Below are positions 3,352-43,064 of a stretch of 64,000 nucleotides of DNA, in pieces. Both the position numbers and the translations under genes were made by a program. Under the pieces are notes generated by a model, which did no database searches, was not told the origin of the DNA, and saw nothing but the letters and a program-made list of their open reading frames with translations. This DNA comes from Synechococcus sp. RS9909 (lineage in GTDB: Bacteria > Cyanobacteriota > Cyanobacteriia > PCC-6307 > Cyanobiaceae): assembly GCF_014279595.1 (NCBI RefSeq), contig NZ_CP047943.1, positions 1,240,001-1,304,000 of the forward strand. Direction: 5' to 3'. Every line of letters starts with the position of its first letter. Positions within the stretch are counted from its first letter, which is position 1.

Positions 3352-3357
3352 CTTGAA

Positions 3358-10027: not shown

Positions 10028-10069
10028 CATTGTGCGCGTTGGCGCGGATGGCGGTTGGGATGGGTCTGA

Positions 10070-11233: not shown

Positions 11234-11248
11234 TTATGAATTGATGGC

Positions 11249-11437
11249 ATGGCCGCCAAGCGCTGCACCTCCAGTCGGGAGGGCAAGGTGCTCCTCTCCT
11301 GCTGGATCACACCCGAGTTGCGCATGGAACTCGATCGCATCTGGGCCGCCAAGGGCCATCGTCCCCATGGCCGCACCCAGAAGGGGATGGAGGAGGTGCT
11401 CTCCCGCTACCTGGCCTCAGAAGCGAGCCAAGGCTGA
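11249..11437 (+). CDS. Ribbon-helix-helix regulator, copy A
   Basis: The 62-aa protein reads MAAKRCTSSREGKVLLSCWI then TPELRMELDRIWAAKGHRPH and GRTQKGMEEVLSRYLASEAS. The VLLSCWIT strand followed by two helices fits an RHH DNA-binding domain. Its stop overlaps the ATG of the cytochrome b561-like gene (TGATG), so the two are translationally coupled. A palindrome just upstream is the likely operator. Confidence 0.65.
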   Translation: MAAKRCTSSREGKVLLSCWITPELRMELDRIWAAKGHRPHGRTQKGMEEVLSRYLASEASQG

Positions 11438-11958: not shown

Positions 11959-11992
11959 TGCCATCTCTGCGATTGATTGGACTCTCTTTCCC

Positions 11993-20977: not shown

Positions 20978-21036
20978 GATCCTGGAGAGGCCCGGCGCAG
21001 CGTCTCTTGCGGTGCCTCCGGGAGTTGGTGGTGCCG
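20978..21036 (-). repeat. TPPDAPH/PQETLRRASPG repeat, copy 3, cut by IS21
   Basis: The repeat runs from TCCTGGAGAGGCCCGGCGCA to GGAGTTGGTGGTGCCG and stops at the left end of IS21 copy 2. Confidence 0.7.
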
Positions 21037-21133
21037 TGTTCGACGACAATCTGGTTGAGGGGTCACGCCAATCTGGTTGACCGCTCTTGAGGGGTTCTGC
21101 TGAATCCGGTTGCCATGCGCAGGGCACCGGGAC

Positions 21134-22729
21134 ATGCCTGCTCCCCTCACCGCTCAACAGATTTCGCTGTACATGTCCAAACGACGAGCCGGCAGCCGCC
21201 AGGAGGTGGCTGCCGCTGCGGCGGGCATCTCGGTGAGCAGTGCCCACCGGATCGACTCCGGTCGCTTGCAACCCAAAGCCGCCAAGCCCCGCAGTAGACG
21301 ACGCCCTGACCCATTGGCGGCGGTGTGGGAGCCGTTGCTGCTTCCCCTGCTTGAACGCCATCCAGCCCTCACGCCCACCACGCTGCTGGAGCACCTGCAG
21401 GAGCAAAATCCTGATCAGGACTGGAGTTCTGTCAAACGCACCCTGCAGCGGCGGGTTCAGCACTGGAAGACCCTCCATGGCCAAACGCCTGAGGTGATGT
21501 TCCCGCTGGCGTACCAGCCCGGCGAGATCGGCTTCTGTGATTTCACCAAGGTCAAGCGCGTGGAGATCACCCTGCGGGGAGAACCATTCCCGCACCTGCT
21601 GTTCCATTACCGCCTGGCCTGGAGTGGCTGGGCTTACGGGCAGGTGATCCATGGCGGCGAGAGCTTTGTGGCCCTTTCCGAGGGCTTGCAGAACGCCCTG
21701 GCTGCCTGCGGTGGGGTGCCAAAAGAACTGCGTACTGATCGCTTATCGGCCGCCAGCCGCAACCGTGACGGCAGCTACGCCCTCGACATCACGCCCCGCT
21801 ACCAGGCGCTCTGCAGCCACTACGGCCTGAGCCCCAGCCGCAATAACCGTGGTGTGGCCCATGAGAACGGCATCGTCGAGGCACCCCATGGCCACGTGAA
21901 ACGGCGGCTGGAGCAGAAGCTGATCCTGCGCGGCAGCTGCGATTTCGAGGAACCCGCCGAATACGGCAAGCTGGTCGCTGAGGTGTTCAGCACGCTCAAT
22001 GCCCCGCGGCAACGGCGCTACGAACAGGAATTGGAGGTGCTCAGCCCGCTGCCGGCCTTTCGCTTTGCCGACTACGAGCTGCTCACGGTGCGGGTGCGGA
22101 GCACCAGCACGATCGAGGTGCGCCAGGTCGTCTACTCGGTGCCGCCGAGCCTGATCGGTCGCCAGGTTGCGGTGCGCTTGCACCATGACCGACTGGTCGT
22201 TTACCTCGGTCGCGACTGGGTTTGCCAGCTCCCACGCGCTTATGGCGCTTCTGGCGAGAAGCGAGCCTGGTGCATCGATCTGGAGCACCTGATCGATGGC
22301 CTACGTGCCAAGCCGCGGGCTCTGCTCCATTGCCGCTACCAGCGCCACCTGTTCCCCGATGAGCGCTGGTGGGGCTTGTGGCAACAGCTCTTGGCCGGCG
22401 GTGACCGTGACGGCGCGGCCCGGTTGATGGTCGAGGCACTGTATGTCGCCGTGCGGGTGGCGTCTTTTGAGCTTGTGCTCAGCTTCCTGCAGCAAGCCCA
22501 CCAACGCAAGGCCCTGTCGCTCTCGCTGTTGCAGCAACGCTTCCGGCTGCCGCCGCGGCGGAGCGCCCTGCCTGATCCCGTGATTCCTCAACACCTGCTG
22601 GCTTCCTATGACCACCTCCTTACCGGTTCCTCGCTCTCAGGCGGTGGAAGCGACCTTGCCGTTGCTGCTCAAACAGCTGAAACTCGCGCGCTTTCGCAGC
22701 CACTGGCAGCCGCTGGCCGAGCAGGCTGA
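21134..22729 (+). CDS. istA: IS21 transposase IstA, copy 2
   Basis: The translation is identical to the copy at 4652-6247 over all 531 residues, from MPAPLTAQQISLYMSKRRAG to the end. It should be active if copy 1 is. Upstream IS-end repeats lie at 21046-21079. Confidence 0.95.
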   Translation: MPAPLTAQQISLYMSKRRAGSRQEVAAAAAGISVSSAHRIDSGRLQPKAAKPRSRRRPDPLAAVWEPLLLPLLERHPALTPTTLLEHLQEQNPDQDWSSVKRTLQRRVQHWKTLHGQTPEVMFPLAYQPGEIGFCDFTKVKRVEITLRGEPFPHLLFHYRLAWSGWAYGQVIHGGESFVALSEGLQNALAACGGVPKELRTDRLSAASRNRDGSYALDITPRYQALCSHYGLSPSRNNRGVAHENGIVEAPHGHVKRRLEQKLILRGSCDFEEPAEYGKLVAEVFSTLNAPRQRRYEQELEVLSPLPAFRFADYELLTVRVRSTSTIEVRQVVYSVPPSLIGRQVAVRLHHDRLVVYLGRDWVCQLPRAYGASGEKRAWCIDLEHLIDGLRAKPRALLHCRYQRHLFPDERWWGLWQQLLAGGDRDGAARLMVEALYVAVRVASFELVLSFLQQAHQRKALSLSLLQQRFRLPPRRSALPDPVIPQHLLASYDHLLTGSSLSGGGSDLAVAAQTAETRALSQPLAAAGRAG

Positions 22730-23411
22730 GGCCCAGGGCTGGAGCCCTGGCCAGTTCCTCTACTCGCTCTGTGAACTGGAGCTGGAGCAGCGGCAAATCG
22801 CCCGCCAGCAGCGCCTGCTGCGCGGCGCCCATCTCCCTTGGCAGAAAGGGCTCGACGGGTTTGACCACCAGCATCTCGACCCGCGTCAATGGCAGGAGCT
22901 GCAAGGCCTGACGCAGCAGACCACCTGGCTGCTGCAGGCGGAAAACCTGTTGCTGTTTGGCCCTAGCGGCGTGGGCAAGACCCACCTGGCGATTGCGATC
23001 ACGATGGCGATGGCTGCGCAGGACCAGGCCTGCCGCTTCTTCCCGGCCACGGCGCTTGTGCAGCTGCTGCAGAAGGCCAAGGCGGCCTATGACCTGCCGG
23101 CAATTCTGCAAAAGCTGGACCGCTACAGCCTGCTGGTGATCGACGACATCTCCTACGTGCGCCGCAGCGAACTGGAGACCTCGGTGCTGTTTGAGCTGAT
23201 CTGCCACCGCTATGAGCGCCGTTCGTTGCTGGTGACCAGCAACCAACCGTTCCGGGAGTGGGACGACATCTTTCCCAACGGATCGATGACTGTGGCGGCG
23301 GTAGACCGGCTGGTGCACCACTGCCACATCATCGGCATCAAAGGCGAGAGCTACCGGCAGAAAGCAGCTGCTGCAAGGGTTTCCAGTGATCAGAGCAACC
23401 CGCCAACGTAA
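22608..23411 (+). CDS. istB: IS21 helper ATPase IstB, copy 2
   Basis: Identical to copy 1 (267 aa, Walker A GPSGVGKTHLAIA). The 5' end overlaps istA by 122 nt. Confidence 0.95.
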   Translation: MTTSLPVPRSQAVEATLPLLLKQLKLARFRSHWQPLAEQAEAQGWSPGQFLYSLCELELEQRQIARQQRLLRGAHLPWQKGLDGFDHQHLDPRQWQELQGLTQQTTWLLQAENLLLFGPSGVGKTHLAIAITMAMAAQDQACRFFPATALVQLLQKAKAAYDLPAILQKLDRYSLLVIDDISYVRRSELETSVLFELICHRYERRSLLVTSNQPFREWDDIFPNGSMTVAAVDRLVHHCHIIGIKGESYRQKAAAARVSSDQSNPPT

Positions 23412-23665
23412 TTGACGCGAGCGTCATCGCCGGCACGATCACAACCACCATCGGCCTAAGCAAACAGAACCAAGGCGGCGACACGAAAACTGGCCCACCC
23501 ACCCAATCAGTAAGCCCACCAGGACAACCGAATTGACGCGCCGCGACAGGCCTGGTCACGATCCAGATCCCAACTGGATTTCAAGCCAGAAGCAGGTCCC
23601 GAAACCAAGCTCATTCACCGGTCAACCTGATTGACGCCACACATCAACCTGATTGACATCTGACA

Positions 23666-26282: not shown

Positions 26283-26507
26283 TTGAGGGAGCTGTTGGCC
26301 TTTGTCGCGGTTTGTGATGGCCGTTCCGATCTGCAGCAGGCCATTTCCTGCTGTACTTCACCGCAGGAGATCATCGATCTGGCGGCGAAGGAAGGACATG
26401 GAATCAGCATCAAGGCCTTGCGCTCATGCTCTCGCGACCTGGCAGCTGCGTACTGGCCCTGGTCTCAGAAAGGCCACGCCTGGCGTCGGGCCTTTTTTGC
26501 GTCTTGA
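26283..26507 (+). CDS. Nif11 domain peptide, copy B
   Basis: The 74-aa product differs from copy A at one residue (ISIKAL against ISVKAL). The other differences I can see within the ORF (TCT/TCC, ACA/ACT) are silent. This supports real coding function under constraint. TTG 26283 is the assumed start; see the poly-C tract for an alternative. Confidence 0.7.
   Translation: MRELLAFVAVCDGRSDLQQAISCCTSPQEIIDLAAKEGHGISIKALRSCSRDLAAAYWPWSQKGHAWRRAFFAS
26469..26498 (+). terminator. Hairpin terminator inside the Nif11 copy B 3' end
   Basis: Identical to 8488-8517: AAAGGCC ... GGCCTTTTTT. Confidence 0.75.
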
Positions 26508-26556: not shown

Positions 26557-26582
26557 CATGGCAATGGCCGGCGGGCCTGTGC

Positions 26583-26804
26583 TCAGAGCACCGAGACGGT
26601 GACGCCGGGTGTGCCCTGCAGCTTGCGGGCGATGGCATGGGCCCGCTCAGCGGGAATCAGGCGCATTTTCTTGACGGGTTTGCCGCGCTTGCCGAGCCAC
26701 TGCAGCTCAAAGGGGCTGGTGCCGCCTTTGGGGACACCTGGGGCATAGCGATGAATGCAGAGGAAGCGGATCGGGCAGGAGAGGGGTTGAACAGCGGAGG
26801 CCAT
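26583..26804 (-). CDS. Small basic protein, intact copy
   Basis: From ATG 26804 the 73-aa product reads MASAVQPLSCPIRFLCIHRY, APGVPKGGTSPFELQWLGKR, GKPVKKMRLIPAERAHAIAR and KLQGTPGVTVSVL. The basic, alternating pattern suggests a nucleic-acid-binding or ribosome-associated peptide, but I know no family. Frames open further upstream to 26882, but the broken copy at 9449 aligns from MASAVQ. Confidence 0.6.
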   Translation of the reverse strand: MASAVQPLSCPIRFLCIHRYAPGVPKGGTSPFELQWLGKRGKPVKKMRLIPAERAHAIARKLQGTPGVTVSVL

Positions 26805-26995
26805 GGAGCGGAAGTGCGAGAGACCCCACCGCTGAGCCACGGCCGCGCAGCCCTCAGGCAAGGACACCCCGCAGGGGTGCATGGCTCGATCCTTGCCGTG
26901 TGAGCAGGCCCGTGTCTGGATGGGGCTGCCCTCGCGCTGCTCTGTGGCCGGCAGTGCTCAACCAGAAGCGGTTGGTCGGTTCGACCCGCGTGAAT

Positions 26996-27157
26996 TCAGA
27001 AGTGGGTCCGCTGGGCCTCGGCGCTGTTGCCCCAGAGCTTGCGTTTGGCGGCCTCGGCATCGGCGATGAACAGCCGTGCTTCTGCGCGGTTGGTGCAGGT
27101 GCGTGCCCGTTCTTCCAGTTGCATCAACTGCACCAGCTGTTGAGTGGTGGCGGTCAT
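26996..27157 (-). CDS. Conserved 53-aa protein, copy B
   Basis: The protein is identical to copy A (MTATTQQLVQLMQLEERART onwards). Upstream GGAGGTGACC gives a stronger ribosome-binding site than AAGGTGACC in copy A. Confidence 0.7.
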   Translation of the reverse strand: MTATTQQLVQLMQLEERARTCTNRAEARLFIADAEAAKRKLWGNSAEAQRTHF

Positions 27158-27184
27158 GGTCACCTCCGGGTGTTCCTGCATCAA

Positions 27185-27203
27185 GGTTAACCCTGGGTTA
27201 ACC
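27185..27203. promoter_or_regulatory. Perfect 19-bp palindrome, copy B
   Basis: GGTTAACCCTGGGTTAACC, 27 bp upstream of the 53-aa gene start. Confidence 0.75.
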
Positions 27204-27246
27204 CATTGGTGCGCGTTGGCGCGGATGGCGGTTGTGATGGGTCTGA

Positions 27247-27795
27247 TCAGGCGGCGTGGTGCTCCTCTGCGGTGGCATGGAAGGGGAAGGGAGCCGGTGC
27301 AATGGTGCTCTGCCGGCGCTGGGCGCGGAGACGGCCGTGTTGCTGTTGCAGCAACTCGATCACCAGCGTGGGGTGGCGATGGATGAGCTCGAGAAAGGAG
27401 GCTCGATCCAGGCGCAGCAGCTGCACGGGTGTGAGCGCCCTGGCCGCCAGTTGGTGGTGCTGATGCCGTGAGGCGAGATCGGGATAGGAGAAGAGATCGC
27501 CGCTGCGGCAGCGAGAGGAGGAGGCGATATTCGGGCCATCAAGTGACACCAGCCCGCGCTCGACGGCAAAGATGGCGCGGACCGGATCGCCTTGCTGCAC
27601 GATCACGCTGCCCGTGGGCAGGAACCAGCGATCGGCACCGGTCTGTTCTGCAATCAGCTCGAGGGGTGTAGGCAGGGTGCGCTGGCTGAGAATCTCCATT
27701 GCCAACGCCAGGGACTTGATGGAGTTGTAGGCACAGCAGCGCAGCGGCGCCAGGGTCTCCAAGGGAGCGCGTCCTGGTTCCTGTTGTGTTGCCAC
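27247..27795 (-). CDS. Stand-alone cyclic-nucleotide-binding domain protein, copy B
   Basis: The product is identical to copy A over 182 residues although the two genes lie 17 kb apart, while the neighbouring 130-aa gene has diverged. This points to recent gene conversion or strong constraint. GTG start after the upstream stop, as in copy A. Confidence 0.75.
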   Translation of the reverse strand: MATQQEPGRAPLETLAPLRCCAYNSIKSLALAMEILSQRTLPTPLELIAEQTGADRWFLPTGSVIVQQGDPVRAIFAVERGLVSLDGPNIASSSRCRSGDLFSYPDLASRHQHHQLAARALTPVQLLRLDRASFLELIHRHPTLVIELLQQQHGRLRAQRRQSTIAPAPFPFHATAEEHHAA

Positions 27796-28191
27796 TCAGG
27801 GCTCGCTGCCATTGATCTCCCTGAGCAGCTCCTCCAGCAGCTGGTGTTCGTCTGGTGTGGGTTGATTGCGCAGCGGCTGTTCCATTGCCAGATCATCGAT
27901 CAGGCCGTAGAAGCGCACATCGAACCAGAGCAGGAACAGCTCGAGCGTGAGCGGTTGGGGCCAGAGGCTGGGGTCCTCACACCAGCAGCGCAGCTCCTCC
28001 CGAAAGATCGGCAGGACATGCTCTCGCAGGCGCTCGTTGGGGGGGGGGCGGTCCTGATCCTGGATTGGGATCAGATAGAGCGAGGGTTCGAGATCATCGA
28101 TCAGAGGGGCTTCTGGTTCCATTGCCTGGGCCCAGGCCCGCATCGGCTCCTTGGCAGAAATGCCGATGGCGCAACGATTCACCACTCCCAT
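27796..28191 (-). CDS. Conserved 131-aa unknown protein, copy B
   Basis: It differs from copy A mainly in three blocks: ISAKEPMRAWAQAMEPEAPL and IDDLEPSLYLIPIQ in the first half, an extra Pro in RPPPNERL (GGGGGGGGG tract at 28049-28057), and DDLAMEQPLRNQ. The C-terminal WFDVRFYGLIDD motif is unchanged. Function unknown. Confidence 0.7.
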   Translation of the reverse strand: MGVVNRCAIGISAKEPMRAWAQAMEPEAPLIDDLEPSLYLIPIQDQDRPPPNERLREHVLPIFREELRCWCEDPSLWPQPLTLELFLLWFDVRFYGLIDDLAMEQPLRNQPTPDEHQLLEELLREINGSEP

Positions 28192-28398
28192 GCGTCCATT
28201 GCTGAACCGCGCCTGTCGGTGCTTCAGCGAACCTCCTGCACGCAACCGTAGAAACGGCCATGGCGCCCGTCAGCTGATGAGGCGCACTACGGGTCGACCG
28301 ATCAGCCCTGCTTGCTGGCGTTGTCACCGCCGCAGTGTCGTTTTGCGCGCTCTGGGATCAGAAGATCTCGCGTTAATCCATAGATTTCGTCCAGCTGC

Positions 28399-28416
28399 GT
28401 ACACTTGTGTACAAGT
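28399..28416. promoter_or_regulatory. RHH operator candidate, copy B
   Basis: GTACACTTGTGTAC (28399-28412) is a perfect inverted repeat around TT, and ACTTGTGTACAAGT overlaps it. It lies about 15 bp before the RHH ATG. Confidence 0.6.
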
Positions 28417-28430
28417 TATGAATTGATGGC

Positions 28431-28619
28431 ATGGACGCCAAGCGCTGCACCTCCAGTCGGGAGGGCAAGGTGCTCCTCTCCTGCTGGATCACACCCGAGT
28501 TGCGCATGGAACTCGATCGCATCTGGGCCGCCAAGGGCCATCGTCCCCATGGCCGCACCCAGAAGGGGATGGAGGAGGTGCTCTTCCGCTACCTGGCCTC
28601 AGAAGCGAGCCAGGGTTGA
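28431..28619 (+). CDS. Ribbon-helix-helix regulator, copy B
   Basis: 62 aa, differing from copy A at two residues (MDAKRC and EEVLFRYLA). TGATG overlap with the cytochrome gene. Confidence 0.65.
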   Translation: MDAKRCTSSREGKVLLSCWITPELRMELDRIWAAKGHRPHGRTQKGMEEVLFRYLASEASQG

Positions 28620-29140
28620 TGGGCCGGGCGACTCCCTATCAGCCGTCTCTCCTGCGTTTGCTGCATGGCGTCACGGCGTTGTTTGTGCCGCTGGCCTGGC
28701 TGAGCGGATTGGTGGTGTTGATCAATCACGACGGTCGATGGCTGCAGCTGCCAGCCGTTCCGGGCGATTGGATTGATGTGCATGGAACGATCGGTGTGCT
28801 GCTGTGGCCCGTGGCGCTGCTGTTGGCGCTCTATGCCTTCACTGCTGGTCGGGCCCGATTGCGCCACCCGGCCAATGCTGCGGTGTTGATCGGGCTGCTG
28901 CTGGCGATCGGCAGCGGCAAATTGATGGATGAGGACTGGTTGCGAACCGGTGAACTGGAGCATTGGCCTTATCACCTGCATCTTCTGGCGTGGATGATCA
29001 TCAGTGGCGCTGTGATCTGGCACGTCGGTGATGTGGTGCGACGCGGCGGTTTGCCCTTGGCAGGTTCCATGGTGAAGTTGACCGTGCGCGAATCAGATCG
29101 TCCGCGCCACTGGCCAAAGCAGCTGCTGCAACGGCGTTGA
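28619..29140 (+). CDS. Cytochrome b561-like membrane protein, copy B
   Basis: Very close to copy A, with changes ALFVPLAW and IGVLLWPVA. All candidate heme histidines are kept (LLHGVTAL, DVHGTIG, YHLHLLAW, VIWHVGD). Homology to module A ends about 9 bp after the stop. No copper genes follow this copy. Confidence 0.75.
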   Translation: MGRATPYQPSLLRLLHGVTALFVPLAWLSGLVVLINHDGRWLQLPAVPGDWIDVHGTIGVLLWPVALLLALYAFTAGRARLRHPANAAVLIGLLLAIGSGKLMDEDWLRTGELEHWPYHLHLLAWMIISGAVIWHVGDVVRRGGLPLAGSMVKLTVRESDRPRHWPKQLLQRR

Positions 29141-29203
29141 TGCCATCTCAATAGGTGAGAGCTTACATGCTAAGTGATTTTGTTGAGGCCTGGTGTCGGT
29201 TGG

Positions 29204-29434
29204 TTAGTGTAAAAAGCATTCAAAAATATCTGTTTGAGGAACGTTCTGGCTACCGGCAACACGCTCCAGGTCCACCTCCGAAATCTCTGATTGAGTCTTT
29301 TTGAGGTCAGCGGTTGAAATCGCAAAGCTTGCAGTCTTGGCAATCACGACCACGGCGTCGGCATCCTCAGCTGCCTTCAGCTCCGCATCAGCATTGACGG
29401 CTTCCAGGAAAGCTTTGAGTTGTTCTTCTGAGAT
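29204..29434 (-). pseudogene. Prochlorosin-like Nif11 precursor, start codon lost
   Basis: The reverse strand encodes ISEEQLKAFLEAVNADAELK, AAEDADAVVVIAKTASFAIS, TADLKKTQSEISEVDLERVA then GSQNVPQTDIFECFLH. This is the leader pattern of prochlorosin/Nif11 precursors (MSEEQLKAFLE ... LEGVAGG) followed by a short core with one Cys and one Thr. The expected ATG reads ATC (29432-29434), and an in-frame TGA lies three codons upstream, leaving no standard start. The cleavage motif is VAGS instead of VAGG. Confidence 0.75.
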
Positions 29435-29589
29435 CGCCTGGAATCAGTGGAGCACAAAGACGAACTTTTTATACGTGCATAACTGTTGTGTCTGCGCTCA
29501 TCATGGTCGTGATGGCAAAGCGGCTGAGGGGTGACTCCGGCTCGGGTCGGGCGGCTTCGCATGTAAGATTCAAAGAATTATCTCTATCT

Positions 29590-29961
29590 ATGGAAAGCGA
29601 GCCACAGAGCCAACCGCAGGCGAGGCGGCGATGGGGTGCACTGTTCGAATTGTTTCTGGCAATCGCAGCGGAGCAGATCGGGACCTCGGCTATGAAGGCA
29701 TCGAATGGCTTCACGCAATTGCCACTTACCGTGCTGGCTCTTGCAGGCTACGCCCTCTCCATGCTGTGGTTCGGGAGAAGCATGCGGGTTCTGCCCATGG
29801 GATTCGCCTATGCGCTTTGGGTTGGTGTTGGCATGGTGGTGGCGAGTGTTTCGGGTGTTTTTCTTTTTTCAGAGGCTTTAACGCCTTCTGTCTTCCTTGG
29901 CTTGATGTTCGTTTTTGTTGGAATTCTTGTTTTGAACTCAAGTCAACAGGAGGCGGCCTGA
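29590..29961 (+). CDS. SMR family transporter subunit 1
   Basis: The 123-aa protein has the four-helix SMR architecture with the key Glu in FLAIAAEQIGTSAMKASNGF and the conserved YALWVGVGMVVASVSGVFLF loop. SMR pumps exchange protons for cationic compounds (quaternary ammonium, guanidinium). ATG 29590 gives the family length plus a short N-terminal extension. It overlaps the second subunit by TGATG, typical of paired heterodimeric SMR systems. Confidence 0.9.
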   Translation: MESEPQSQPQARRRWGALFELFLAIAAEQIGTSAMKASNGFTQLPLTVLALAGYALSMLWFGRSMRVLPMGFAYALWVGVGMVVASVSGVFLFSEALTPSVFLGLMFVFVGILVLNSSQQEAA

Positions 29962-30311
29962 TGTTGCTTGGTTACGCCGTTCTGATTGCCGCCATTCTTT
30001 TTGAGAATATTGGCACGACCGCGTTAAAGGGCTCCAATGGCTTTAAGAGGCCAGTCCTGGGTTCTGTCGCGGTCCTGGGATACATCCTGTCGTTCGCTTT
30101 TATGGGGCAGGCCTTGGCAAGGCTGCCCCTTGCAATTGCCTATTCCATCTGGTGTGGCCTCGGTATGTCTGTTGTGACCCTGACGGGAATTCTCGTTTAT
30201 AAAGAGAAATTTGGATGGAAGGTTGCTCTTGGCTTGCTTCTCATCTTCTCAGGAGTCATGATCTCGAACTATCATGGTTTGGTGGAGTCAATGCCAGGAG
30301 TCGGAAGGTGA
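29961..30311 (+). CDS. SMR family transporter subunit 2
   Basis: The 116-aa partner has the Glu in AAILFENIGTTALKGSNGF and AIAYSIWCGLGMSVVTLTGI. It is translationally coupled to subunit 1, so the pair likely forms an asymmetric pump of the EbrAB/MdtJI kind. Its 3' end overlaps the convergent Rieske oxygenase gene by 24 nt. Confidence 0.9.
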   Translation: MLLGYAVLIAAILFENIGTTALKGSNGFKRPVLGSVAVLGYILSFAFMGQALARLPLAIAYSIWCGLGMSVVTLTGILVYKEKFGWKVALGLLLIFSGVMISNYHGLVESMPGVGR

Positions 30312-31436
30312 TTTGGGACTGTTCAGCTCAGGGATGAGTTTTCGGAGCAAGTCGTGATGTTCCCGCAACGCTTTTTCAGAGTCTCCGAGCAGCCCATGTT
30401 CCCAATAGTTCGACGCAGTGGCCTGATAGTGCAGTTCGCAGACATGTTTGTCCTCCAGCATTACCTCCGCATCGATTGCTGTTGATGTTTCCCTGGCGAG
30501 TGTCATGCTCTCGCTTTCTCCGTCGTACTTGTACGTCGCTCCCGTCATCACCGAGGTCTGCGCGTCGAGCGGAATAGAGCGGTAGAAGCCTGCTGATTCT
30601 GGATAAAAGACAAGCACGGAGACTGGAAACAGGCCGATGTAAAGCCAGGCTTGTGGAATGGAGCGGAAGGGCTCCGGGTGTTGCTCCACCAGCTCTCGGT
30701 AGCGCTGATTCAACTCTCGCCTTGATGGGTTCTCGTTGAAGGGGCCTCGGATGCGATGGGTTCCATCAATCCATGGACCTTCCTCGTAGCGACGTCCGTA
30801 GAGATCGGTGAGGCCCGGATGGGCAGTGGGGCAGTGGTAACACTCGTTGTCGACGTCGACCATTGCTTTCCAGTTCACCGGTGTGATCGGGCTGGTGTAC
30901 AGGCCATCGGTTGGTTCGAGTGATTCCAGCGGGTAAACACTGAGCTCGTCCTCGTGTCGCGCCATCATTTCCGCGATCGAGCCCTGCGGCCCAGGTTCAA
31001 ACCGCAGAAATAGGAAGCCTCGCCAGATCTCTAGCTCCAAGGGCTTCAGTGCCCAGGTGTTGCTGTCCAGATCAGGGAATTTTTCTGGCTGGGAAACTTT
31101 CTTAAGCTCTCCTTCCAATGTGTAAATCCAGGCATGAAATGGACACATGATGGCGCCACGACAATGCCCCTGGTCCCCTTCCACCAGCCTTGAGCCCCGA
31201 TGCCGGCATGTGTTGTGAAAGGCGCGAATCACAGCGTCCTGACCCCGCATCACCAGGGCTCGTTCACCCAGGAGCTCAAAGCTCAGCCAGTCTCCAGGCT
31301 GCTTGAGATCGTTGGCGTGACCGACGACATGCCAATGATTAAGAAAAACCTTCTCTTTCTCCAGTTCTAGTAACCGTGCGCTGCGGTAGCTCCAGGCCGG
31401 GAGTCCGTCGCGATTCCAGGTGCTTGCCGATGTCAT
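30288..31436 (-). CDS. Rieske non-heme iron oxygenase alpha subunit
   Basis: The 382-aa protein has the Rieske ligands C-x-H at residues 77/79 (NTCRHRGSRL) and C-x2-H at 98/101 (IMCPFHAWIY), then the mononuclear iron site DNECYHCPTAHPGL. It belongs to the ring-hydroxylating/betaine-demethylating oxygenase family. The substrate is not evident. The adjacent SMR pair suggests a quaternary amine, which is inference. Start could also be 31466. Composition is lower in GC than core genes. Confidence 0.9.
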   Translation of the reverse strand: MTSASTWNRDGLPAWSYRSARLLELEKEKVFLNHWHVVGHANDLKQPGDWLSFELLGERALVMRGQDAVIRAFHNTCRHRGSRLVEGDQGHCRGAIMCPFHAWIYTLEGELKKVSQPEKFPDLDSNTWALKPLELEIWRGFLFLRFEPGPQGSIAEMMARHEDELSVYPLESLEPTDGLYTSPITPVNWKAMVDVDNECYHCPTAHPGLTDLYGRRYEEGPWIDGTHRIRGPFNENPSRRELNQRYRELVEQHPEPFRSIPQAWLYIGLFPVSVLVFYPESAGFYRSIPLDAQTSVMTGATYKYDGESESMTLARETSTAIDAEVMLEDKHVCELHYQATASNYWEHGLLGDSEKALREHHDLLRKLIPELNSPKSPSDSWH

Positions 31437-31832
31437 GGTTCGATTCGACTCAACCACTGATAGCAAGCGCGGAGCTGATTGACCTGATCTGACATGGGTC
31501 CGCAGGGCGACTCGAGACGTTCCAACCCGGTGAATTGATCTTTTGCAAGGGAGGTTGCTTCAATGTGTGATTGCCAGCATGTTGACAGCAGTGTGATCGA
31601 TAATCTGTCAATCGAAGAAGCCAGATGCTGCACCTTTGGCCATGTGATCGCAATCTACTGCCAAAACTGACAACAAGCTGATCCAGTGGCTGGCCGACGA
31701 TTATGTCTTCGATTCTGGGTCCGACGTGGCAAATTCAATTTGGTGCTTGAGGCTGGCTATCAGGAAACAAGGCACCACCAGGTTGCCCTCGAGGCCATCC
31801 GCCAATGGCCGGCGAAACCGGCTCGAGCTGTC
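31437..31832. other. Intergenic region upstream of the Rieske gene
   Basis: No gene is supported. TTGACAG (31582-31588) and CTGTCAA (31605-31611) form an inverted repeat with a 16-bp gap, placed about 150 bp upstream of the Rieske start, and could be an operator. Confidence 0.45.
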
Positions 31833-32564
31833 TTAGCGGCTCCATTGATCGAGCAGGTTGGAGAAGAGCCTGCGGGCCTGCTGTTCGATCTGGGGGTGCA
31901 GCTGGCTCCAGTCCTGAAGCAATTGCTCAGGTCCATCGGCTCCCATCGCGGCGATGACGTAGTCCCGATCCTCCTCAATCCAGCGCTCCAGGCTGGGACC
32001 ACTCACCTCGAGGTGGCATTGCAGAGCGAAGACATGCTGCGCGATGCGAAAGACCTGCTCGCGGCAGTGCAGGGAGGAGCCCAGCAATGTCGCTGAGGCG
32101 GGGAGGCGAATGCGATCGCCATGCCAGTGCAAAACGATTTCGCTTGGGTTCATGCCCCTGAGCACGGGTTCCTGCTCTGCGTTCCTGAGCCAGTGAATGG
32201 CGCCGTAGCCGACTTCTCTCAAGGGAACGGGTGGTTCACCGACCCGCAGGGGTTCCACCGAGCCACCTGCGGCGATAGCGAGGAGCTGGGCCCCAAGGCA
32301 GATGCCGAGGATCGGTTGTTGCATTTGGTGTCTGCAGCGGAGCCACTCGAGCTCCAGTTGCAGCCAGGGCAGCGGATCGGAGGTGCTCATCGGGCCACCG
32401 AGCACCAGGGCGATACTGCCAGGCGTTTCGGTGTGATCCGGTAAGCGATCGCCGCAATCAGTCCGGAACACCTCCACAGCCAGCCCACGCTCAAGTGCCA
32501 GATCAGCGATGAGATCCGGTCCCTCACAGTCGAGATGTTGAAGCACCAGCAGTCGATCGACCAT
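31833..32564 (-). CDS. Type 1 glutamine amidotransferase (GMP-synthase-like)
   Basis: The 243-aa protein has the nucleophile elbow ILGICLGAQLLAIAAGG (Cys 89), LVLGGPMSTSD near residue 55, and the catalytic His-Glu pair in FALQCHLEVS. It is a stand-alone class I glutamine amidotransferase. Such proteins hydrolyse glutamine or gamma-glutamyl compounds and the acceptor here is unknown. Length is normal. Confidence 0.88.
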   Translation of the reverse strand: MVDRLLVLQHLDCEGPDLIADLALERGLAVEVFRTDCGDRLPDHTETPGSIALVLGGPMSTSDPLPWLQLELEWLRCRHQMQQPILGICLGAQLLAIAAGGSVEPLRVGEPPVPLREVGYGAIHWLRNAEQEPVLRGMNPSEIVLHWHGDRIRLPASATLLGSSLHCREQVFRIAQHVFALQCHLEVSGPSLERWIEEDRDYVIAAMGADGPEQLLQDWSQLHPQIEQQARRLFSNLLDQWSR

Positions 32565-32709
32565 CAGGGAAACCAGGCGCCATGACCCGGCCGAAGCCGG
32601 CAGGACAATGTCACTGTCGGATGCGCTGTCCAGGCTTGTTTGTTGCCGTTGCTGCAGACCAGGCCCTGATCCTCAGGAGATGGTGATGAAGGGATCAATT
32701 GGAGGCTAG

Positions 32710-34417
32710 GAGCCTGTCGCACATAGATCGGCGCACGCTCCTCTCTCCGCCGCCCCTGAATCCGCCCAGATCCCTGTGACAGCAGGGGCTCTGGGTGAGA
32801 GAATGGGGCATGGTGAAACCCAAGTCCTTCCGTCCCTGGAATCCCGAGCAGACCCTGCTGCTGTCACCGTCTCCGGTGGAGTGGCTGCCGGAGAACCACC
32901 TGGTGTTCTTCCTGCTGGATCTGTCGGCTAAAAGGATCCGCGCGGGGAGAAGGCCTATGACCCGCGGATGATGGTGGTGCTGCTGCTCTACGCCTACTGC
33001 GTCGGGCTGCCCAGCTCCCGCAGGATCGAGAAGGCCTGCTGGGAAGACGCCGCCTTCCGGGTGCTCACCGGCAACCAGCAACCGGACCACAGCCGCATCA
33101 GTGACTTCCGCCGTCGTCACCTCGATGCCCTGGCCGGGCTGTTTGTTCAGGTGCTGCGGCTGTGTCAGAAGGCCGGGTTGGTGAGCCTGGGCCATGTCGC
33201 CCTCGATGGCACCAAGGTGTAGACGAAGTCTTCTCCGAAGGAGTAAGCCAATGCCAGCAGGCACAAGGCCATGAGCCACGAACGGATGCTCAAAAGCGAG
33301 AAGCAGCTTGAGAACGAGATACGGGCGCTGCTGCGCAAGGCCGAGATCCTCGATGCCCAGGAAGACGGTCAGTACGGCAAGGGCAAGCGGGGCGATGAGC
33401 TGCCGGAAGAGCTGCAGCGCCGAGCCAGCAGGCTGGAGTGGATCCGCAAGGCCAAAGCGGAGTTGGAGGCAGAGGCTGCTGCCGGTAAGGCACGGCAACG
33501 GGAGGAACAGGCAGAGGCGGCCGATCAGGAGGCTGCAGACGCCGAGGCCACTGGCGAGGAGCAGCGCAGCAAGCGGGCCATACGCCGGGCCCGTGCAACC
33601 CGCCGGCGAGCAGAGGAGGCCCGGAAGCTGGCGACCTTGAAGGCAGAAGCAGCGGGGCTGGACTCCCCAGTCCTCAACGCAGGTGACGATCCGCTGGCGC
33701 TGCCCAGTCGCCAGCTCCCCACCGATGCAGCAGGTGAACCCAAACCTCAGGCCCAGCGCAACTTCACGGATCCAGAGAGCCACATCCTCAAAGGCTCGGG
33801 CGGCTGGATCCAGGGCTACAACGCCCAGGCCGCAGTGGATGGGGATCACAAGGTGATCGTGGCGATCGGCGTGAGCAACCAGCCCAGCGACGCGGTGCAC
33901 CTGCTGCCGATGCTGGAGCGGATCGAGGCCAATATCGGTCAACCTCCCGAGGCCCTGATTGCTGACGCGGGGTACTGCAGCACCGCCAACCTGGAGGCGT
34001 GCGAGCAAAGGGGCCTGAAGGCCTACATCTCCACGAGCCGGGAGCAACACGGACAGAGGCCCCAGCCATCGCGGGGACCTGCACCCAGAGATCTCGATGC
34101 GAAGGGGCGGATGGATCGCAGGCTCAGGTCCAAAGCGGGTCAGGCGATCTATGCCCTGCGCAAGACGATCGTGGAGCCGGTATTCGGTCAGATCAAGGGC
34201 GCCAGGGGACTGGATCGCTTCTGCCTGCGCGGCCTGGAGAAGGTGAACGGGGAATGGGCGCTGATGGCCACCACCCACAACCTGCTGAAGCTGTTCCGGG
34301 CCTCGACCGCCCCGGCCTGAGGGCCTGGTTCAGTTCGCTCCAGCTGAGAACAGGTATCCCTGAAGCTCAGGGGCTCCATGTCGACGCTATGGCCCCAGCA
34401 AAATGTGCGACAGGTTC
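32710..34417 (+). mobile_element. IS1182-family insertion sequence, decayed
   Basis: The 1,708-bp element is bounded by GAGCCTGTCGCACAT and its near-inverse ATGTGCGACAGGTTC (one mismatch), with the palindromic target CTAG duplicated on both sides (32706-32709, 34418-34421). This is the insertion style of IS1182 elements. The right end abuts a nucleotidyltransferase relic. The transposase is broken in two places. Confidence 0.85.
32810..34320 (+). pseudogene. IS1182-type DDE transposase, broken
   Basis: The frame starts MVKPKSFRPWNPEQTLLLSP and reads to FFLLDLSA, where a deletion shifts the frame. It continues as DPRGEKAYDPRMMVVLLLYA ... VALDGTKV (32968-33222). There, two in-frame stops (TAG 33220, TAA 33244) bracket ACGAAGTCTTCTCCGAAGGAG. 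The remaining 350 residues (ANASRHKAMSHERML, AVDGDHKVIVAIGVS, LIADAGYCSTANLEA, TIVEPVFGQIKGARGLDRF) keep the catalytic acids. Confidence 0.9.
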
Positions 34418-38596: not shown

Positions 38597-38845
38597 GCTG
38601 AGGGGGTTCAAGGGGCTGCTGGTCTGGCTGTTTGTCCTTCAAAGATCACAGTCAACGCCAGTGCCAATTCGCGTGAGCACGCCTGATTTCTTGTTGATTG
38701 TCTCCATCCATTCGGCCGTGCCTAATCCAGAGAGGGTTGACCATCACGCTCCTTGTTGCGCCTTCCTGCAGCGCTTGGTTTGTTGGTGCCAAGACCGATG
38801 CTGCCCGTCGATGAGCCCTGCCCCTACTGGTGCTGACTTGTTGAT
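38597..38845. other. Intergenic, nothing recognised
   Basis: No ORF with coding character, hairpin or repeat was seen. Module C begins at about 38846. Confidence 0.5.
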
Positions 38846-38857
38846 CGACCCGTGAAT

Positions 38858-39019
38858 TCAGAAGTGGGTCCGCTGGGCCTCGGCGCTGTCGCCCCAGAGC
38901 TTGCGTTTGGCGGCCTCGGCATCGGCGATGAACAGCCGTGCTTCTGCGCGGTTGGTGCAGGTGCGTGCCCGTTCTTCCAGCTGCATCAACTGCACCAGCT
39001 GTTGGGTGGTGGCGGTCAT
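38858..39019 (-). CDS. Conserved 53-aa protein, copy C
   Basis: Same as copies A and B except for Asp in LWGDSAEAQRTHF. The ribosome-binding site is AGGAGGTGACC. Confidence 0.7.
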   Translation of the reverse strand: MTATTQQLVQLMQLEERARTCTNRAEARLFIADAEAAKRKLWGDSAEAQRTHF

Positions 39020-39046
39020 GGTCACCTCCTGGTGTTCCTGCATCAA

Positions 39047-39065
39047 GGTTAACCCTGGGTTAACC
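39047..39065. promoter_or_regulatory. Perfect 19-bp palindrome, copy C
   Basis: GGTTAACCCTGGGTTAACC, unchanged, although the CNBD gene next to it in A and B is deleted here. Confidence 0.75.
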
Positions 39066-39071
39066 CTCGTG

Positions 39072-39464
39072 TCAGGGCTCGCTGCCATTGATCTCCCTGA
39101 GCAGCTCCTCCAGCAGCTGGCGTTCGTCTGGTGTGGGTTGATTGCGCAGCGGCTGTTCCATTGCCAGATCATCGATCAGGCCGTAGAAGCGCACATCGAA
39201 CCAGAGCAGGAACAGCTCGAGCGTGAGTGGTTGGGGCCAGTGGCTGGGGTCCTCACACCAGCAGCGCAGCTCCTCTCGAAAGATCGGCAGGACATGCTCT
39301 CGCAGGCGCTCCTCTACCGGGCGGTCCTGATCCTGGAGGGGGATCAGATAGAGCGAGGGCTCCAGCTCAGCCAGCATCGTCCCCTCCGGTTCCATTGCAT
39401 GGGCCCAGGCCCGCATCGGCTCCTTGGCAGAAATGCCGATGGCGCAACGATTCACCACTCCCAT
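39072..39464 (-). CDS. Conserved 130-aa unknown protein, copy C
   Basis: This copy combines the ISAKEP block and DDLAMEQPLRNQ block of copy B with the HAMEPEGTMLAELEPSLYLI block of copy A, plus its own RPVEERL. Its stop lies 7 bp from the palindrome because the CNBD gene is deleted. Confidence 0.7.
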   Translation of the reverse strand: MGVVNRCAIGISAKEPMRAWAHAMEPEGTMLAELEPSLYLIPLQDQDRPVEERLREHVLPIFREELRCWCEDPSHWPQPLTLELFLLWFDVRFYGLIDDLAMEQPLRNQPTPDERQLLEELLREINGSEP

Positions 39465-39676
39465 GCGCCCGTAGCTGAACCGCGCCTGTCGGTGCTTCAG
39501 CGAACCTCCTGCACGCAACCGTAGAAACGGCCATGGCGCCCGTCAGCTGATGAGGCGCACTACGGGTCGACCGATCAGCCCTGCTTGCTGGCGTTGTCAC
39601 CGCCGCAGTGTCGTTTTGCGCGCTCTGGGATCAGAAGATCTCGCGCTAATCACGTGGTTTCGTCCAGTTCCGTAGA

Positions 39677-39688
39677 CTTGCGTACAAG
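39677..39688. promoter_or_regulatory. RHH operator candidate, copy C
   Basis: CTTGCGTACAAG, one base different from copy A. Confidence 0.45.
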
Positions 39689-39703
39689 CAAGGAGTTGAT
39701 GGC

Positions 39704-39799
39704 ATGATCGCCAAGGGCCATCGTCCCCATGGCCGCACCCAGAAGGGGATGGAGGAGGTGCTCTTCCGCTACCTGGCCTCAGAAGCGAGCCAGGGTTGA
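39704..39799 (+). pseudogene. RHH regulator with N-terminal deletion, copy C
   Basis: The 31-codon frame MIAKGHRPHGRTQKGMEEVL FRYLASEASQG lacks the strand and first helix (residues 2-32 of copy B). DNA binding should be lost. The TGATG coupling to the cytochrome gene is kept. Confidence 0.75.
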
Positions 39800-40320
39800 T
39801 GGGCCGGGCGACTCCCTATCAGCCGTCTCTCCTGCGTTTGCTGCATGGCATCACGGCGTTGTTTGTGCCGCTGGCCTGGCTGAGCGGATTGGTGGTGTTG
39901 ATCAATCACGACGGTCGATGGCTGCAACTGTCAGCTGTTCCGGGCGATTGGATTGATGTGCATGGAACGATCGGTGTGGTGCTTTGGCCCGTGGCGCTGC
40001 TGTTGGCGCTCTATGCCTTCACTGCTGGTCGGGCCCGATTGCGCCACCCGGCCAATGCTGCGGTGTTGATCGGGCTGCTGCTGGCGATCGGCAGCGGCAA
40101 ATTGATGGATGAGGACTGGTTGCGAACCGGTGAACTGGAGCATTGGCCTTATCACCTGCATCTTCTGGCGTGGATGATCATCAGTGGCGCTGTGATCTGG
40201 CACGTCGGTGATGTGGTGCGACGCGGCGGTTTGCCCTTGGCAGGTTCCATGGTGAAGTTGACAGTGCGCGAATCAGATCGTCCGCGCCACTGGCCAAAGC
40301 AGCTGCTGCAACGGCGATGA
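39799..40320 (+). CDS. Cytochrome b561-like membrane protein, copy C
   Basis: Differs from copy B at a few positions (HGITALFVP, LQLSAVPG, IGVVLWP). Candidate heme ligands are unchanged. It is followed by a relic of the 85-aa protein and a His-rich exporter. Confidence 0.75.
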   Translation: MGRATPYQPSLLRLLHGITALFVPLAWLSGLVVLINHDGRWLQLSAVPGDWIDVHGTIGVVLWPVALLLALYAFTAGRARLRHPANAAVLIGLLLAIGSGKLMDEDWLRTGELEHWPYHLHLLAWMIISGAVIWHVGDVVRRGGLPLAGSMVKLTVRESDRPRHWPKQLLQRR

Positions 40321-40337
40321 GCGATTCAAGGCGGTCA

Positions 40338-40412
40338 AGTGGTCTGAAAGGCCAGGACGGTCCTGGTCAATTGTTCTATCTCAAGGCCGTTCAGCACTGC
40401 GAAGGTCGTTGA
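40338..40412 (+). pseudogene. Relic of the 85-aa membrane protein
   Basis: SGLKGQDGPGQLFYLKAVQH CEGR, the tail of the gene at 11993-12250. The membrane part is gone. Homology to module A continues to about 40470, where the exporter gene takes over. Confidence 0.8.
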
Positions 40413-40432
40413 GGTATTAGCACTCTTTGTAG

Positions 40433-41539
40433 TCAGTGTTGGTGACGATGGTGAGCATCGCTCACATGGGAATGGTCGTGCTCCTGTTCTTGATGGAGAT
40501 GCTCATGAGCATGCCAGAACGGTTGCTCGTCTGCGTTCTCAGGCTCAGAATCAGGCGGATGCTCGTGGTTGTGATGCAGGCTTTCGGCCTGGGGGGTATG
40601 ACGGTGGCGATGGTTATGACGTTGCGGCGCATGCCGGTGTCTGTGGGTGTGTTCATCGCCAAGCAGAAGCACCACCCCGATGAGCATCAGAGCTGATGCC
40701 AGCGTGATGGCAATCGTGAGCGGCACTTGCAACACGACGACGGAAAACAATGCACCTACAAAAGGAGCTGCCGCAAACAGCACCGCTTCTCTGGCCGCCC
40801 CCAGATTGCGGAGTGCCAGCAGATCCAGCCAGATCGAGAGGCCATAGCCCAGTGCACCGATCAACAGCAAGAGGGCCATCACCGCAGGCGATGGAAATCG
40901 TTCCTGCATGACCATGGCGAGGCCCAGCATGGGAGCGGCTGCACCAAGGGATTTGATCGCGGCGATCTGAAGTGGATTGCGCAGAGTCAGGCGTTGGCTG
41001 ATGGTGTTGTCGATGCCCCAGGCCAGTGTGGCCACGGTGATCCAGGCGCCGCCTTGCCAGGTGCTGCCAGCCAGTGAACCCTCCGAGAGGATCAGGGCCC
41101 CGGCAATGGTCAGGCCCGCGGCGAGAACACCACGAGCGCCGATGTGTTCCCGGCCAAGGAGGACTGCGATCAAGAGCGTGAACACGGTTTCCAGATTGAG
41201 CAGGAGCGAGCTGGATGCTGGTGAGAGCAGCGCCAGTCCGTTCACCAGGGCCAATGGGCCGATCACACCGCCAAGAAGGGTCAGGATCACCAACCCTCCC
41301 CAGTCGCTTTTTTGCACAGGCGTTTCTTGCGATTGCCCGGCCTTGAGCAGCTGCAGGGGCCAGAGCATCAGTGCCGCACCGCCATAAAGCAGGCCCGCCA
41401 GGGTCAAGGGAGAGCCAGTCGCCGTGAGCGTGCTGATCAAGGGAGCACTGCATCCGAACAGCAGGGCAGCGCCGAGGCCAGCCCATTGGCCTCGCGATCG
41501 TGCCGTGATCTCAGGACTGGGGCTGATCGTCTTTCGCAT
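40433..41539 (-). CDS. EamA/DMT exporter with His-rich tail
   Basis: The 368-aa protein has ten membrane segments in two EamA repeats (GLGAALLFGCSAPLISTLTA; WGIDNTISQRLTLRNPLQIA) and a C-terminal tail of about 75 residues dense in His (HTHRHRHAPQRHNHRHRHTP, HEHLHQEQEHDHSHVSDAHH). Such tails bind Ni, Co, Zn or Cu, so export of a divalent metal is plausible. It is inserted between the module C cytochrome and the second glutaredoxin-MauE gene. Confidence 0.85.
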   Translation of the reverse strand: MRKTISPSPEITARSRGQWAGLGAALLFGCSAPLISTLTATGSPLTLAGLLYGGAALMLWPLQLLKAGQSQETPVQKSDWGGLVILTLLGGVIGPLALVNGLALLSPASSSLLLNLETVFTLLIAVLLGREHIGARGVLAAGLTIAGALILSEGSLAGSTWQGGAWITVATLAWGIDNTISQRLTLRNPLQIAAIKSLGAAAPMLGLAMVMQERFPSPAVMALLLLIGALGYGLSIWLDLLALRNLGAAREAVLFAAAPFVGALFSVVVLQVPLTIAITLASALMLIGVVLLLGDEHTHRHRHAPQRHNHRHRHTPQAESLHHNHEHPPDSEPENADEQPFWHAHEHLHQEQEHDHSHVSDAHHRHQH

Positions 41540-41611
41540 CAGTCAGAATGGTGATGTGAGGTCGATGCGATCGGCAATGGCTTCGCTGCGGATGGAGTTT
41601 CCACAAGACTG

Positions 41612-41641
41612 ATCCAGCCGTTCCAGACGATCAAGGGCTGA
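41612..41641 (+). pseudogene. Relic of the DUF411 3' end
   Basis: IQPFQTIKG then stop matches the last codons of the DUF411 gene at 12493-12960. It shows that module C once carried the whole copper operon. Confidence 0.75.
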
Positions 41642-42399
41642 TGACACAAGTTTCTCCTGAGAATCGTTCAGCGCTGCGGGATGTTCAGCTCTATCGGATG
41701 GACACGCCGGAGCACGCCTGCCCCTGGGGCCTGAAGGCGTTGGCTCTGTTGCAGAGCCAGGGCATTGCCTTTGAGGATCATCCGTTGCGCAGCACTGACG
41801 ACGTGGAGACGTTCAAACGCACCTACGGCGTGAGCAGCACGCCCCAGGTGTTCAGCGGCCCGGTGCGGATCGGTGGCTACAGCGAACTGGCCGCGCGGTT
41901 GGGGGTGAAGGCGGAGGGACCGGAGGTGTCCTATACCCCGGTGATTGCGGTCTTTGTCAGCGCGGCCCTGATGGCCCTTGCCCTTGGCGCAGGCCTGCGC
42001 GGCTTCATGGGCCTGGCGATCAGTCTGCTGGCGATGCTCAAGCTGATGGATGTGCCGGCCTTTGCCGCCAGTTTCCTGAAATACGACCTGCTCAGCCAGC
42101 GCTGGCGGGCCTGGAGCCGGCTCTATCCAGGGGTGGAGTTGCTGGTGGGGCTGGGCATGCTCATGCAACCGGCGTCCGGTCTGGATGGCCTGGTGGGAGC
42201 GGTGGCGGTGCTGTTGGGCGGGATGGGGATGCTGTCGGTGGGCAAGGCGGTGTTCATCGATCACCTCGCCCTCAATTGCGCCTGCGTGGGCGGCAACACG
42301 CGCACACCGCTTGGTGTGGTGAGCTTGGCCGAGAACCTGATCATGACCTTGATGGGTGCGTCGCTGTTGTTTGGCGTCAGCTCACCATCAGGTTGGTGA
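41641..42399 (+). CDS. Glutaredoxin-MauE fusion protein, copy C
   Basis: 252 aa, very close to 12960-13733 (EHACPWGLKALALLQSQGIA, NCACVGGNTRTPLGVVSLAE). The last residues SSPSGW replace SLSPMMRSGLG because homology ends at about 42380, where a DUF1345 relic starts on the other strand. The oxidase and MerR genes are absent here. Confidence 0.8.
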   Translation: MTQVSPENRSALRDVQLYRMDTPEHACPWGLKALALLQSQGIAFEDHPLRSTDDVETFKRTYGVSSTPQVFSGPVRIGGYSELAARLGVKAEGPEVSYTPVIAVFVSAALMALALGAGLRGFMGLAISLLAMLKLMDVPAFAASFLKYDLLSQRWRAWSRLYPGVELLVGLGMLMQPASGLDGLVGAVAVLLGGMGMLSVGKAVFIDHLALNCACVGGNTRTPLGVVSLAENLIMTLMGASLLFGVSSPSGW

Positions 42400-42815: not shown

Positions 42816-43064
42816 ATGAGTGTGGCTGAGCTGGAGCGTTTGGTGGAGGCGGCGGAAACCGATGGGACGGTCCGTCACTCCCTTCGCCAGTGCCGATCGC
42901 GACGCGAGCTGGTTCTTGTCGCTCGGAAGCTTGGGTACCGCATCACCCGCATCGATCTTGATCACGCTGTGGAGGCCGATCGCCAGGAACAGCGCATCCG
43001 CCGACTCAATGCCCAGTGCACCATCGTGTCGCTGACGGATCCAGCCGACAGTGCTGACAGGTAG
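42816..43064 (+). CDS. Nif11-type peptide paired with GMC oxidoreductase
   Basis: The 82-aa protein reads MSVAELERLVEAAETDGTVR, HSLRQCRSRRELVLVARKLG, YRITRIDLDHAVEADRQEQR and IRRLNAQCTIVSLTDPADSA DR. The first 55 residues fit Nif11. The tail after LDHA is Cys/Thr/Ser-containing but has no Gly-Gly site. The GMC gene starts 28 bp downstream, so the two are likely co-transcribed. Confidence 0.7.
   Translation: MSVAELERLVEAAETDGTVRHSLRQCRSRRELVLVARKLGYRITRIDLDHAVEADRQEQRIRRLNAQCTIVSLTDPADSADR

What the first reader, a model, noticed from the sequence alone, without database searches (positions are those of the whole stretch)
29204..29443. Prochlorosin-like precursor gene with ATC in place of its start
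The leader ISEEQLKAFLEAVNADAELK through DLERVA and a short core GSQNVPQTDIFECFLH match ProcA/Nif11 precursors, but the expected ATG reads ATC and a stop lies three codons upstream. The rest of the frame is intact, so the loss is recent, or ATC is used as a rare start. The host may therefore carry, or have carried, a ProcM-type lanthipeptide system.
Basis: partly seen in the sequence, partly recalled or inferred. Interest (0 to 1): 0.6.

Follow-up and report, generated by a model that had tools for sequence, protein, structure and literature searches.

The report
Dead prochlorosin gene, synthetase gone
This marine Synechococcus-type genome carries one decayed copy of a gene for a cyclic-peptide precursor, while the enzyme and exporter that such peptides need were not found, so it is most likely an ordinary genetic relic rather than a working system.

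Summary
On the minus strand, window 29204-29434 is a 76-codon frame with a ProcA-type Nif11 leader (TIGR03798, E 2e-14) and a 14-residue core; ATC stands where 148 of 155 homologous segments have ATG, and TGA lies four codons upstream. 'Recently lost' is supported; 'ATC as a rare start' is disfavoured. The complete 2.60-Mb genome gave no DUF4135, LANC_like, Peptidase_C39 or YcaO match and no ProcM remnant. Of 21 genomes with a ProcA-like match (this one included), 14 have a full-strength DUF4135 match. The leader also has Ser at a glycine found in 102 of 102 compared leaders, lacks four codons in the alignment, and ends in GS. Its neighbours (two SMR genes, a Rieske oxygenase) lie inside the ~30-kb procM/procA island of relative G028. 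That island's place in this genome is empty; the neighbours plus the relic lie ~424 kb away, at the edge of a triplicated segment near transposases. Pairwise pN/pS shows no relaxation, so any decay is recent or below that test's power. Not settled: whether this lineage lost the whole system or received the fragment already orphaned. A degraded member of a known kind, of low interest.

The parts
29204..29434 (-). procA-like relic frame, ATC codon to TAA: leader 62 aa ending VAGS, putative core QNVPQTDIFECFLH (one Thr, one Cys)
29432..29434 (-). ATC at the place of the ATG start
29444..29446 (-). in-frame TGA stop upstream, four codons before the ATC
29249..29254 (-). codons for Gly-Ser at the usual Gly-Gly cleavage place
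28616..29140 (+). cytochrome b561-type gene (PF01292, at its cut-off), right end of segment D2; left neighbour of the relic
26573..29149 (.). segment D2, 94% identical to D1 (9438-11967) and partly repeated as D3 (from 38845); the relic lies just beyond its right end
29557..31492 (.). block 90.6% identical to G028:C1:1664748-1666683, which lies inside that genome's procA/procM island
29488..29961 (+). frame of the first SMR transporter gene (PF00893), right neighbour of the relic; true start not determined
29991..30311 (+). second SMR transporter (PF00893), within the listed frame 29631-30311
30288..31466 (-). Rieske / ring-hydroxylating oxygenase alpha-subunit gene

Best explanation
It is a pseudogene of a prochlorosin (ProcA) precursor, orphaned from its enzymes. 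A working ProcA is translated from ATG, its Nif11-type leader is used by the LanM-type synthetase ProcM, Ser/Thr of the core are dehydrated and joined to Cys, and a C39 exporter cuts after Gly-Gly (established knowledge of the family, partly in PMC10783134; not tested here). Shown here: the leader is ProcA-like, the start is ATC, a glycine found in all compared leaders is Ser, four codons are missing in the alignment, and synthetase and C39 families are not found in the complete genome. Inferred: the procM/procA island was lost from, or was never complete in, this lineage; one precursor gene stayed with the SMR/Rieske block in a repeat-rich region; without an enzyme it is no longer kept by selection.
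For: Leader membership. Lesions: start codon; Ser where 102 of 102 compared leaders have Gly, four codons lost in a stretch with Leu in 99%, GS where 95 of 102 have GG; 4 departures from columns conserved in at least 95% (start left out), against at most 2 in each of 102 others. No enzymes: DUF4135 0 in own, 15 of 34 genomes searched have it; LANC_like 0 in own, 15 of 34, 14 over the cut-off; Peptidase_C39 0 in own, 15 of 18; YcaO 0 in own, 2 of 7; ProcM of G028 gives one weak match in own (E 0.027, 59 residues) against E 0 in G025. Own genome holds no second match to this peptide at E 0.001. Context: the SMR/SMR/Rieske block with Nif11-type genes divergently beside it is shared with G028's island, which holds procM and exporter-type genes; the flanks of that island lie side by side in own genome at C1:1693.36-1693.55 kb. 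Other procA copies without ATG include two with early stops.
Against: The rest of the frame is open, and pairwise pN/pS of the leader to its 12 nearest relatives (median 0.27) equals that among intact leaders (median 0.27; 22 of 59 as high or higher), so no long unconstrained evolution shows; this average is insensitive to a recent loss. With a looser limit (columns at least 90% conserved) the frame has 5 departures and one of the 102 others has 6. Its terminal branch is only the 9th longest of 103. GS occurs in 3 and a 62-residue leader in 9 of 102 apparently intact leaders. Four other non-ATG copies have open frames. ATC is a listed initiator in NCBI table 11 (recalled). The core still has a Thr and a Cys.
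Confidence: 0.87

Rival explanations
1. The gene is alive: ATC is used as a weak start and the peptide works unmodified, or is modified by an enzyme of another family.
For: Frame otherwise open and pairwise pN/pS like that of intact leaders; procA-like frames with ATA, CTG, GTG or TTG at this place are open throughout; some other genomes have ProcA-like matches without a full LanM.
Against: No LanM, LANC, C39 or YcaO match in the genome; Ser at the glycine found in all others, four codons missing, GS instead of GG; no sigma-70-type promoter match within 29100-29700 (weak, 0.3 expected by chance, and intact procA genes were not scanned as a control).
Confidence: 0.05
2. About origin, and compatible with the relic reading: the fragment arrived already orphaned. 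The SMR/Rieske block with one procA was received by transfer or recombination, and this lineage never had ProcM.
For: The relic lies in a repeat-rich region with transposases that is not where G028 has its island; no ProcM remnant; G027 has the SMR/Rieske block with no ProcA match and no DUF4135.
Against: G028 matches this genome at 90-95% left of the empty site and about 90% in D2, and the block itself at 90.6%, as expected for vertical descent. The right flank of the empty site is less alike, 74-86%.
Confidence: 0.3
3. Sequencing error at the start codon.
For: A single base separates ATC from ATG.
Against: The other lesions do not depend on that base, and the enzymes were not found genome-wide.
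Confidence: 0.03

Closest known systems
Prochlorosin precursors (ProcA / SyncA), Nif11-type leader TIGR03798
   Same: Leader sequence, C-terminal DLExVAG-type motif, short core with Thr and Cys, Nif11-type gene divergently beside the SMR block as in G028
   Different: ATC for ATG, Ser at a glycine found in all 102 compared leaders, four codons missing, GS for GG, no synthetase or C39 exporter found in the genome
ProcA-bearing strains without LanM (PMC10783134: LanM in 9 of 12 prochlorosin-containing strains; sections 6 and 7 read)
   Same: ProcA-like gene without LanM in the genome
   Different: Here the precursor itself is damaged; the word pseudogene does not occur in that paper's main text (supplements not seen)
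ProcM/ProcA island of relative G028 (C1:1656.1-1686.8 kb)
   Same: SMR/SMR/Rieske block with Nif11-type genes divergently beside it
   Different: Island complete there, with procM and exporter-type genes; not present at that place in this genome

Membership tests
Prochlorosin precursor (ProcA) | Nif11-type leader | tested here: met
   TIGR03798 53.6 bits over cut-off 32.3; PF07862 30.2 over 23.8
Prochlorosin precursor (ProcA) | Closest relatives are ProcA genes of procM-bearing genomes | tested here: inconclusive
   best match in G006 77%, G025 76%, G028 71%; G025 and G028 have full procM, but G006, with which the tree groups it (support 0.85), has only a weak partial DUF4135 match
Prochlorosin precursor (ProcA) | ATG (or another usual start) before the leader | tested here: not met
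   ATC; 148 of 155 homologous segments ATG
Prochlorosin precursor (ProcA) | Double-Gly cleavage site | tested here: not met
   GS; 95 of 102 others GG, 3 GS
Prochlorosin precursor (ProcA) | Core with Ser/Thr and Cys | tested here: met
   QNVPQTDIFECFLH, one Thr and one Cys
Working prochlorosin system | ProcM-type LanM synthetase in the genome | tested here: not met
Working prochlorosin system | C39 exporter-protease in the genome | tested here: not met
   0 in own, 15 of 18 genomes have a match
Working prochlorosin system | Modified peptide present in cells or medium | not testable with these tools
   no spectra

The most novel reading that the evidence does not exclude
The orphan frame is still translated from ATC and the linear or otherwise modified peptide has a function of its own, so that Nif11/ProcA leaders can outlive their lanthipeptide synthetase as a different kind of small exported or regulatory peptide.
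Probability: 0.04. Interest if true: 0.55.

Novelty: new member of a known kind. Interest (0 to 1): 0.18.

Why it matters
It records what looks like the end stage of prochlorosin loss in one marine picocyanobacterium: a precursor gene outlasts the synthetase and then decays. That warns those who count prochlorosin genes from leader matches alone not to count relics as products, and gives one data point for how these islands come and go. It does not change the picture of the family.

Tried and rejected
ATC as a working start: weighed as a rival and disfavoured for the lesions and the missing enzymes. In-frame GTG at 29353 (49 aa) as the true start: rejected, since it would drop the N-terminal part of the leader that aligns with relatives. 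Other modifying enzymes: only YcaO was sought besides LanM and LANC; none in own genome. Phage origin: no match in the phage collection (471 bases), no ProcA relative in IMG/VR with two queries. Named genomes: 35 loci encode a relative, best by E-value 64% in Synechococcus sp. UW105, none carrying this gene's core (aligned residues mostly 1-62 to 1-75; near records may be left out). Second procA array of G028 (C1:1190-1194 kb) as the syntenic source: 40 kb of own genome before the window is not collinear with G028:C1:1166-1220 kb apart from one 171-base match. Direct repeat at the two edges of the G028 island: a short-word blast of 401 bases around the left edge against L082 found nothing; a local alignment of 100 bases from each edge gave a gapped alignment, score 47, with no shuffled control; not pursued. 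A 257-base match of the island's right part at own C1:443 kb turned out to be a host gene of which G028's island holds repeated fragments, so it is no island remnant. Selection on the terminal branch: not possible (below); the pairwise test gave no sign of relaxation. Promoter scan: nothing. Exact source copy of the relic in G028: not identified; nearest in the tree are two G006 copies (0.36 and 0.41) and a G028 copy (0.48).

Limits of the sets. The 102 leaders were gathered by a pattern that demands ATG, a QL-type start and a cleavage-like motif, from loci brought in mostly by similarity to this frame; the glycine and the lost codons lie outside that pattern, the start codon does not. A first start-codon count (159 ATG of 167) counted some copies twice; one search recounts on distinct 78-base segments, from a slightly larger set of loci. 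Both see only homologues whose alignment begins at the first residue of a query. PNAS 2017 paper on the radiation of these lanthipeptides: not held, not read, only seen as cited. PMC10783134 was seen as abstract and outline, sections 6 (with 7), 8 and 12, and passages; other papers only as search listings.

Full report
What is there. The frame lies on the minus strand at window 29204-29434. It encodes ISEEQLKAFLEAVNADAELKAAEDADAVVVIAKTASFAISTADLKKTQSEISEVDLERVAGS followed by QNVPQTDIFECFLH and TAA. ATC stands at the place of the start and TGA lies four codons upstream. The match to the Nif11 leader family is far above chance (TIGR03798 E 2e-14; PF07862 over its cut-off). Of 149 genomes (the own one and relatives), 21, the own included, have a match to this peptide at E 0.001, the best in a relative at 77% identity; the own genome has only this one. 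The own genome has 12 Nif11-domain matches over the cut-off, this one among them. Among named genomes, 35 loci encode a relative, the best by E-value 64% identical in Synechococcus sp. UW105; none was found in IMG/VR.

The start. DNA similarity to procA genes of relatives covers the ATC codon and runs a little beyond it. Of 155 distinct start segments of homologues in the fetched loci, 148 have ATG; the other seven are CTG, ATA, AAG, GTG, TTG, ATT and this ATC. Of those, the AAG and ATT copies have early stops and are dead, while the ATA, CTG, GTG and TTG frames are open; GTG, TTG and CTG are known starts. So loss of the ATG is not a special feature of this gene.

Further lesions. Against 102 intact leaders, the frame has Ser where all 102 have Gly, lacks four codons in a conserved stretch, and ends in GS where 95 of 102 have GG and 3 have GS. 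Nine of the 102 leaders are also 62 residues long, so a short leader as such is not a lesion; the lost place is. Leaving the start out, the frame departs from four columns that are at least 95% conserved; no other leader departs from more than two. At a 90% limit it departs from five, and one other leader from six. Against decay stands the pairwise pN/pS, the same as among intact leaders (median 0.27 in both; 22 of 59 as high or higher). Such an average reflects mostly the long shared history and would miss a recent loss. Its terminal branch is the 9th longest of 103. Together this fits a gene that was kept until recently. The leader groups with the two copies of G006 (support 0.85).

No partners found. 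The genome is a single contig of 2,603,169 bases, rated 100% complete. It has no DUF4135 match, while 15 of 34 searched genomes have one (the earlier own-only search had no positive control). LANC_like: none, against 15 of 34, 14 over the cut-off. Peptidase_C39: none, against 15 of 18. YcaO: none, against 2 of 7. The ProcM of G028 finds one 59-residue stretch at E 0.027 in the own genome, but E 0 in G025. Of the 21 genomes with a match to the peptide, 14 have a full-strength DUF4135 match and G006 a weak partial one; the six left are the own genome, G008, G010, G013, G020 and G053 (searches compared). Of the 13 genomes among the 34 without a match to the peptide, none has DUF4135, but several of these are incomplete assemblies. 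The 115 other genomes without a match were not searched for DUF4135. ProcA-like matches without LanM are therefore not unique to this genome, and the literature has them too: LanM in 9 of 12 prochlorosin-containing strains (PMC10783134).

Where it sits. To the left, window 26573-29149 is a segment that is repeated at 9438-11967 (94%) and partly from 38845 on; it ends with a cytochrome b561-type gene. To the right, 29557-31492 holds two SMR genes and a Rieske oxygenase gene and is 90.6% identical to G028:C1:1664748-1666683. In G028 this block lies inside an island with procA genes on both sides and procM, a gene with a C39 domain, and what I read from the translations as a second ABC exporter, an HlyD-like and a TolC-like gene (names recalled, no family search made). 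Nif11-type genes stand divergently beside the first SMR gene there, as the relic does here. The left flank of that island (G028 up to 1656101, 90-95%) and its right flank (from 1686757, 74-86%) lie side by side in the own genome at C1:1693.36-1693.55 kb: the site is empty. The relic is about 424 kb from it. Transposase genes lie at 32968-34320, and two nearly identical IS21-type copies further left.

Reading. The simplest account is a relic: a ProcA gene without its enzymes that lost its start and conserved residues. Whether the lineage once had the whole island or received the SMR/Rieske block with a single procA is open. Similar identity of block, left flank and D2 to G028 favours descent; the different place, the repeats and the lack of any ProcM remnant favour transfer or rearrangement. 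G027 has the block with no ProcA match and no DUF4135, so the block and the procA genes do not always go together.

Limits. No near strain of the same species was on hand. The set of 102 leaders is biased to intact genes by its pattern. There are no expression or peptide data. The name ProcM for G028's gene rests on domain matches and on the island's content.

Noticed in passing
window 3275-3395 and 3396-25690: tRNA-Met at 3275-3351; G028 is contiguous (within 5 bases) where this genome has about 22.3 kb between 3395 and 25691, which looks like an island set in 3' of the tRNA.
   Followed up: partly
window 3716-6348 and 21033-23665: Two IS21-type copies (IstB and Mu-transposase-C matches in the first) in inverted orientation, 99.96% identical, so recently active.
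   Followed up: partly
window 9438-11967, 26573-29149, 38845-42382: A segment with a cyclic-nucleotide-binding gene and a cytochrome b561-type gene present wholly or partly three times, 89-99% identical piecewise; matched once in the G028 stretch compared.
   Followed up: partly
window 31838-32666: Glutamine amidotransferase gene that in G028 lies between the cyclic-nucleotide-binding and the b561-type parts is here displaced to beyond the relic block.
   Followed up: no
window 8332-8427, 26313-26408 and 42816-42956: Further Nif11-domain matches: two weak ones in repeated stretches and one over the cut-off at 42816.
   Followed up: no
L089 (G006:C1:1852000-1866000): G006 has two ProcA-like matches and no full LanM, but a locus with a YcaO match, ABC-exporter-like genes (my reading) and a 390-aa frame with a weak DUF4135 match; it recalls the YcaO clusters described in PMC10783134.
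   Followed up: partly
L074 (G017) near 2984 and L135 near 36: Procurable procA-like copies with AAG or ATT in place of ATG and early stops: dead precursors in other genomes.
   Followed up: partly
L081 13282-13407 and 18293-18423, L082 132-379 and 16651-16907 (G028 island); L139 3044-3685 (own C1:443 kb): G028's island holds several fragments, 76-91% alike, of a gene that is present at own C1:443 kb, where I read it as a DNA-3-methyladenine glycosylase (name recalled); some lie just upstream of procA genes, so procA genes may have been copied together with this piece.
   Followed up: partly
L104 and L105: Two contigs filed as a Blastopirellula MAG encode a ProcA-like leader (58%); possibly wrongly binned picocyanobacterial DNA.
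   Followed up: no
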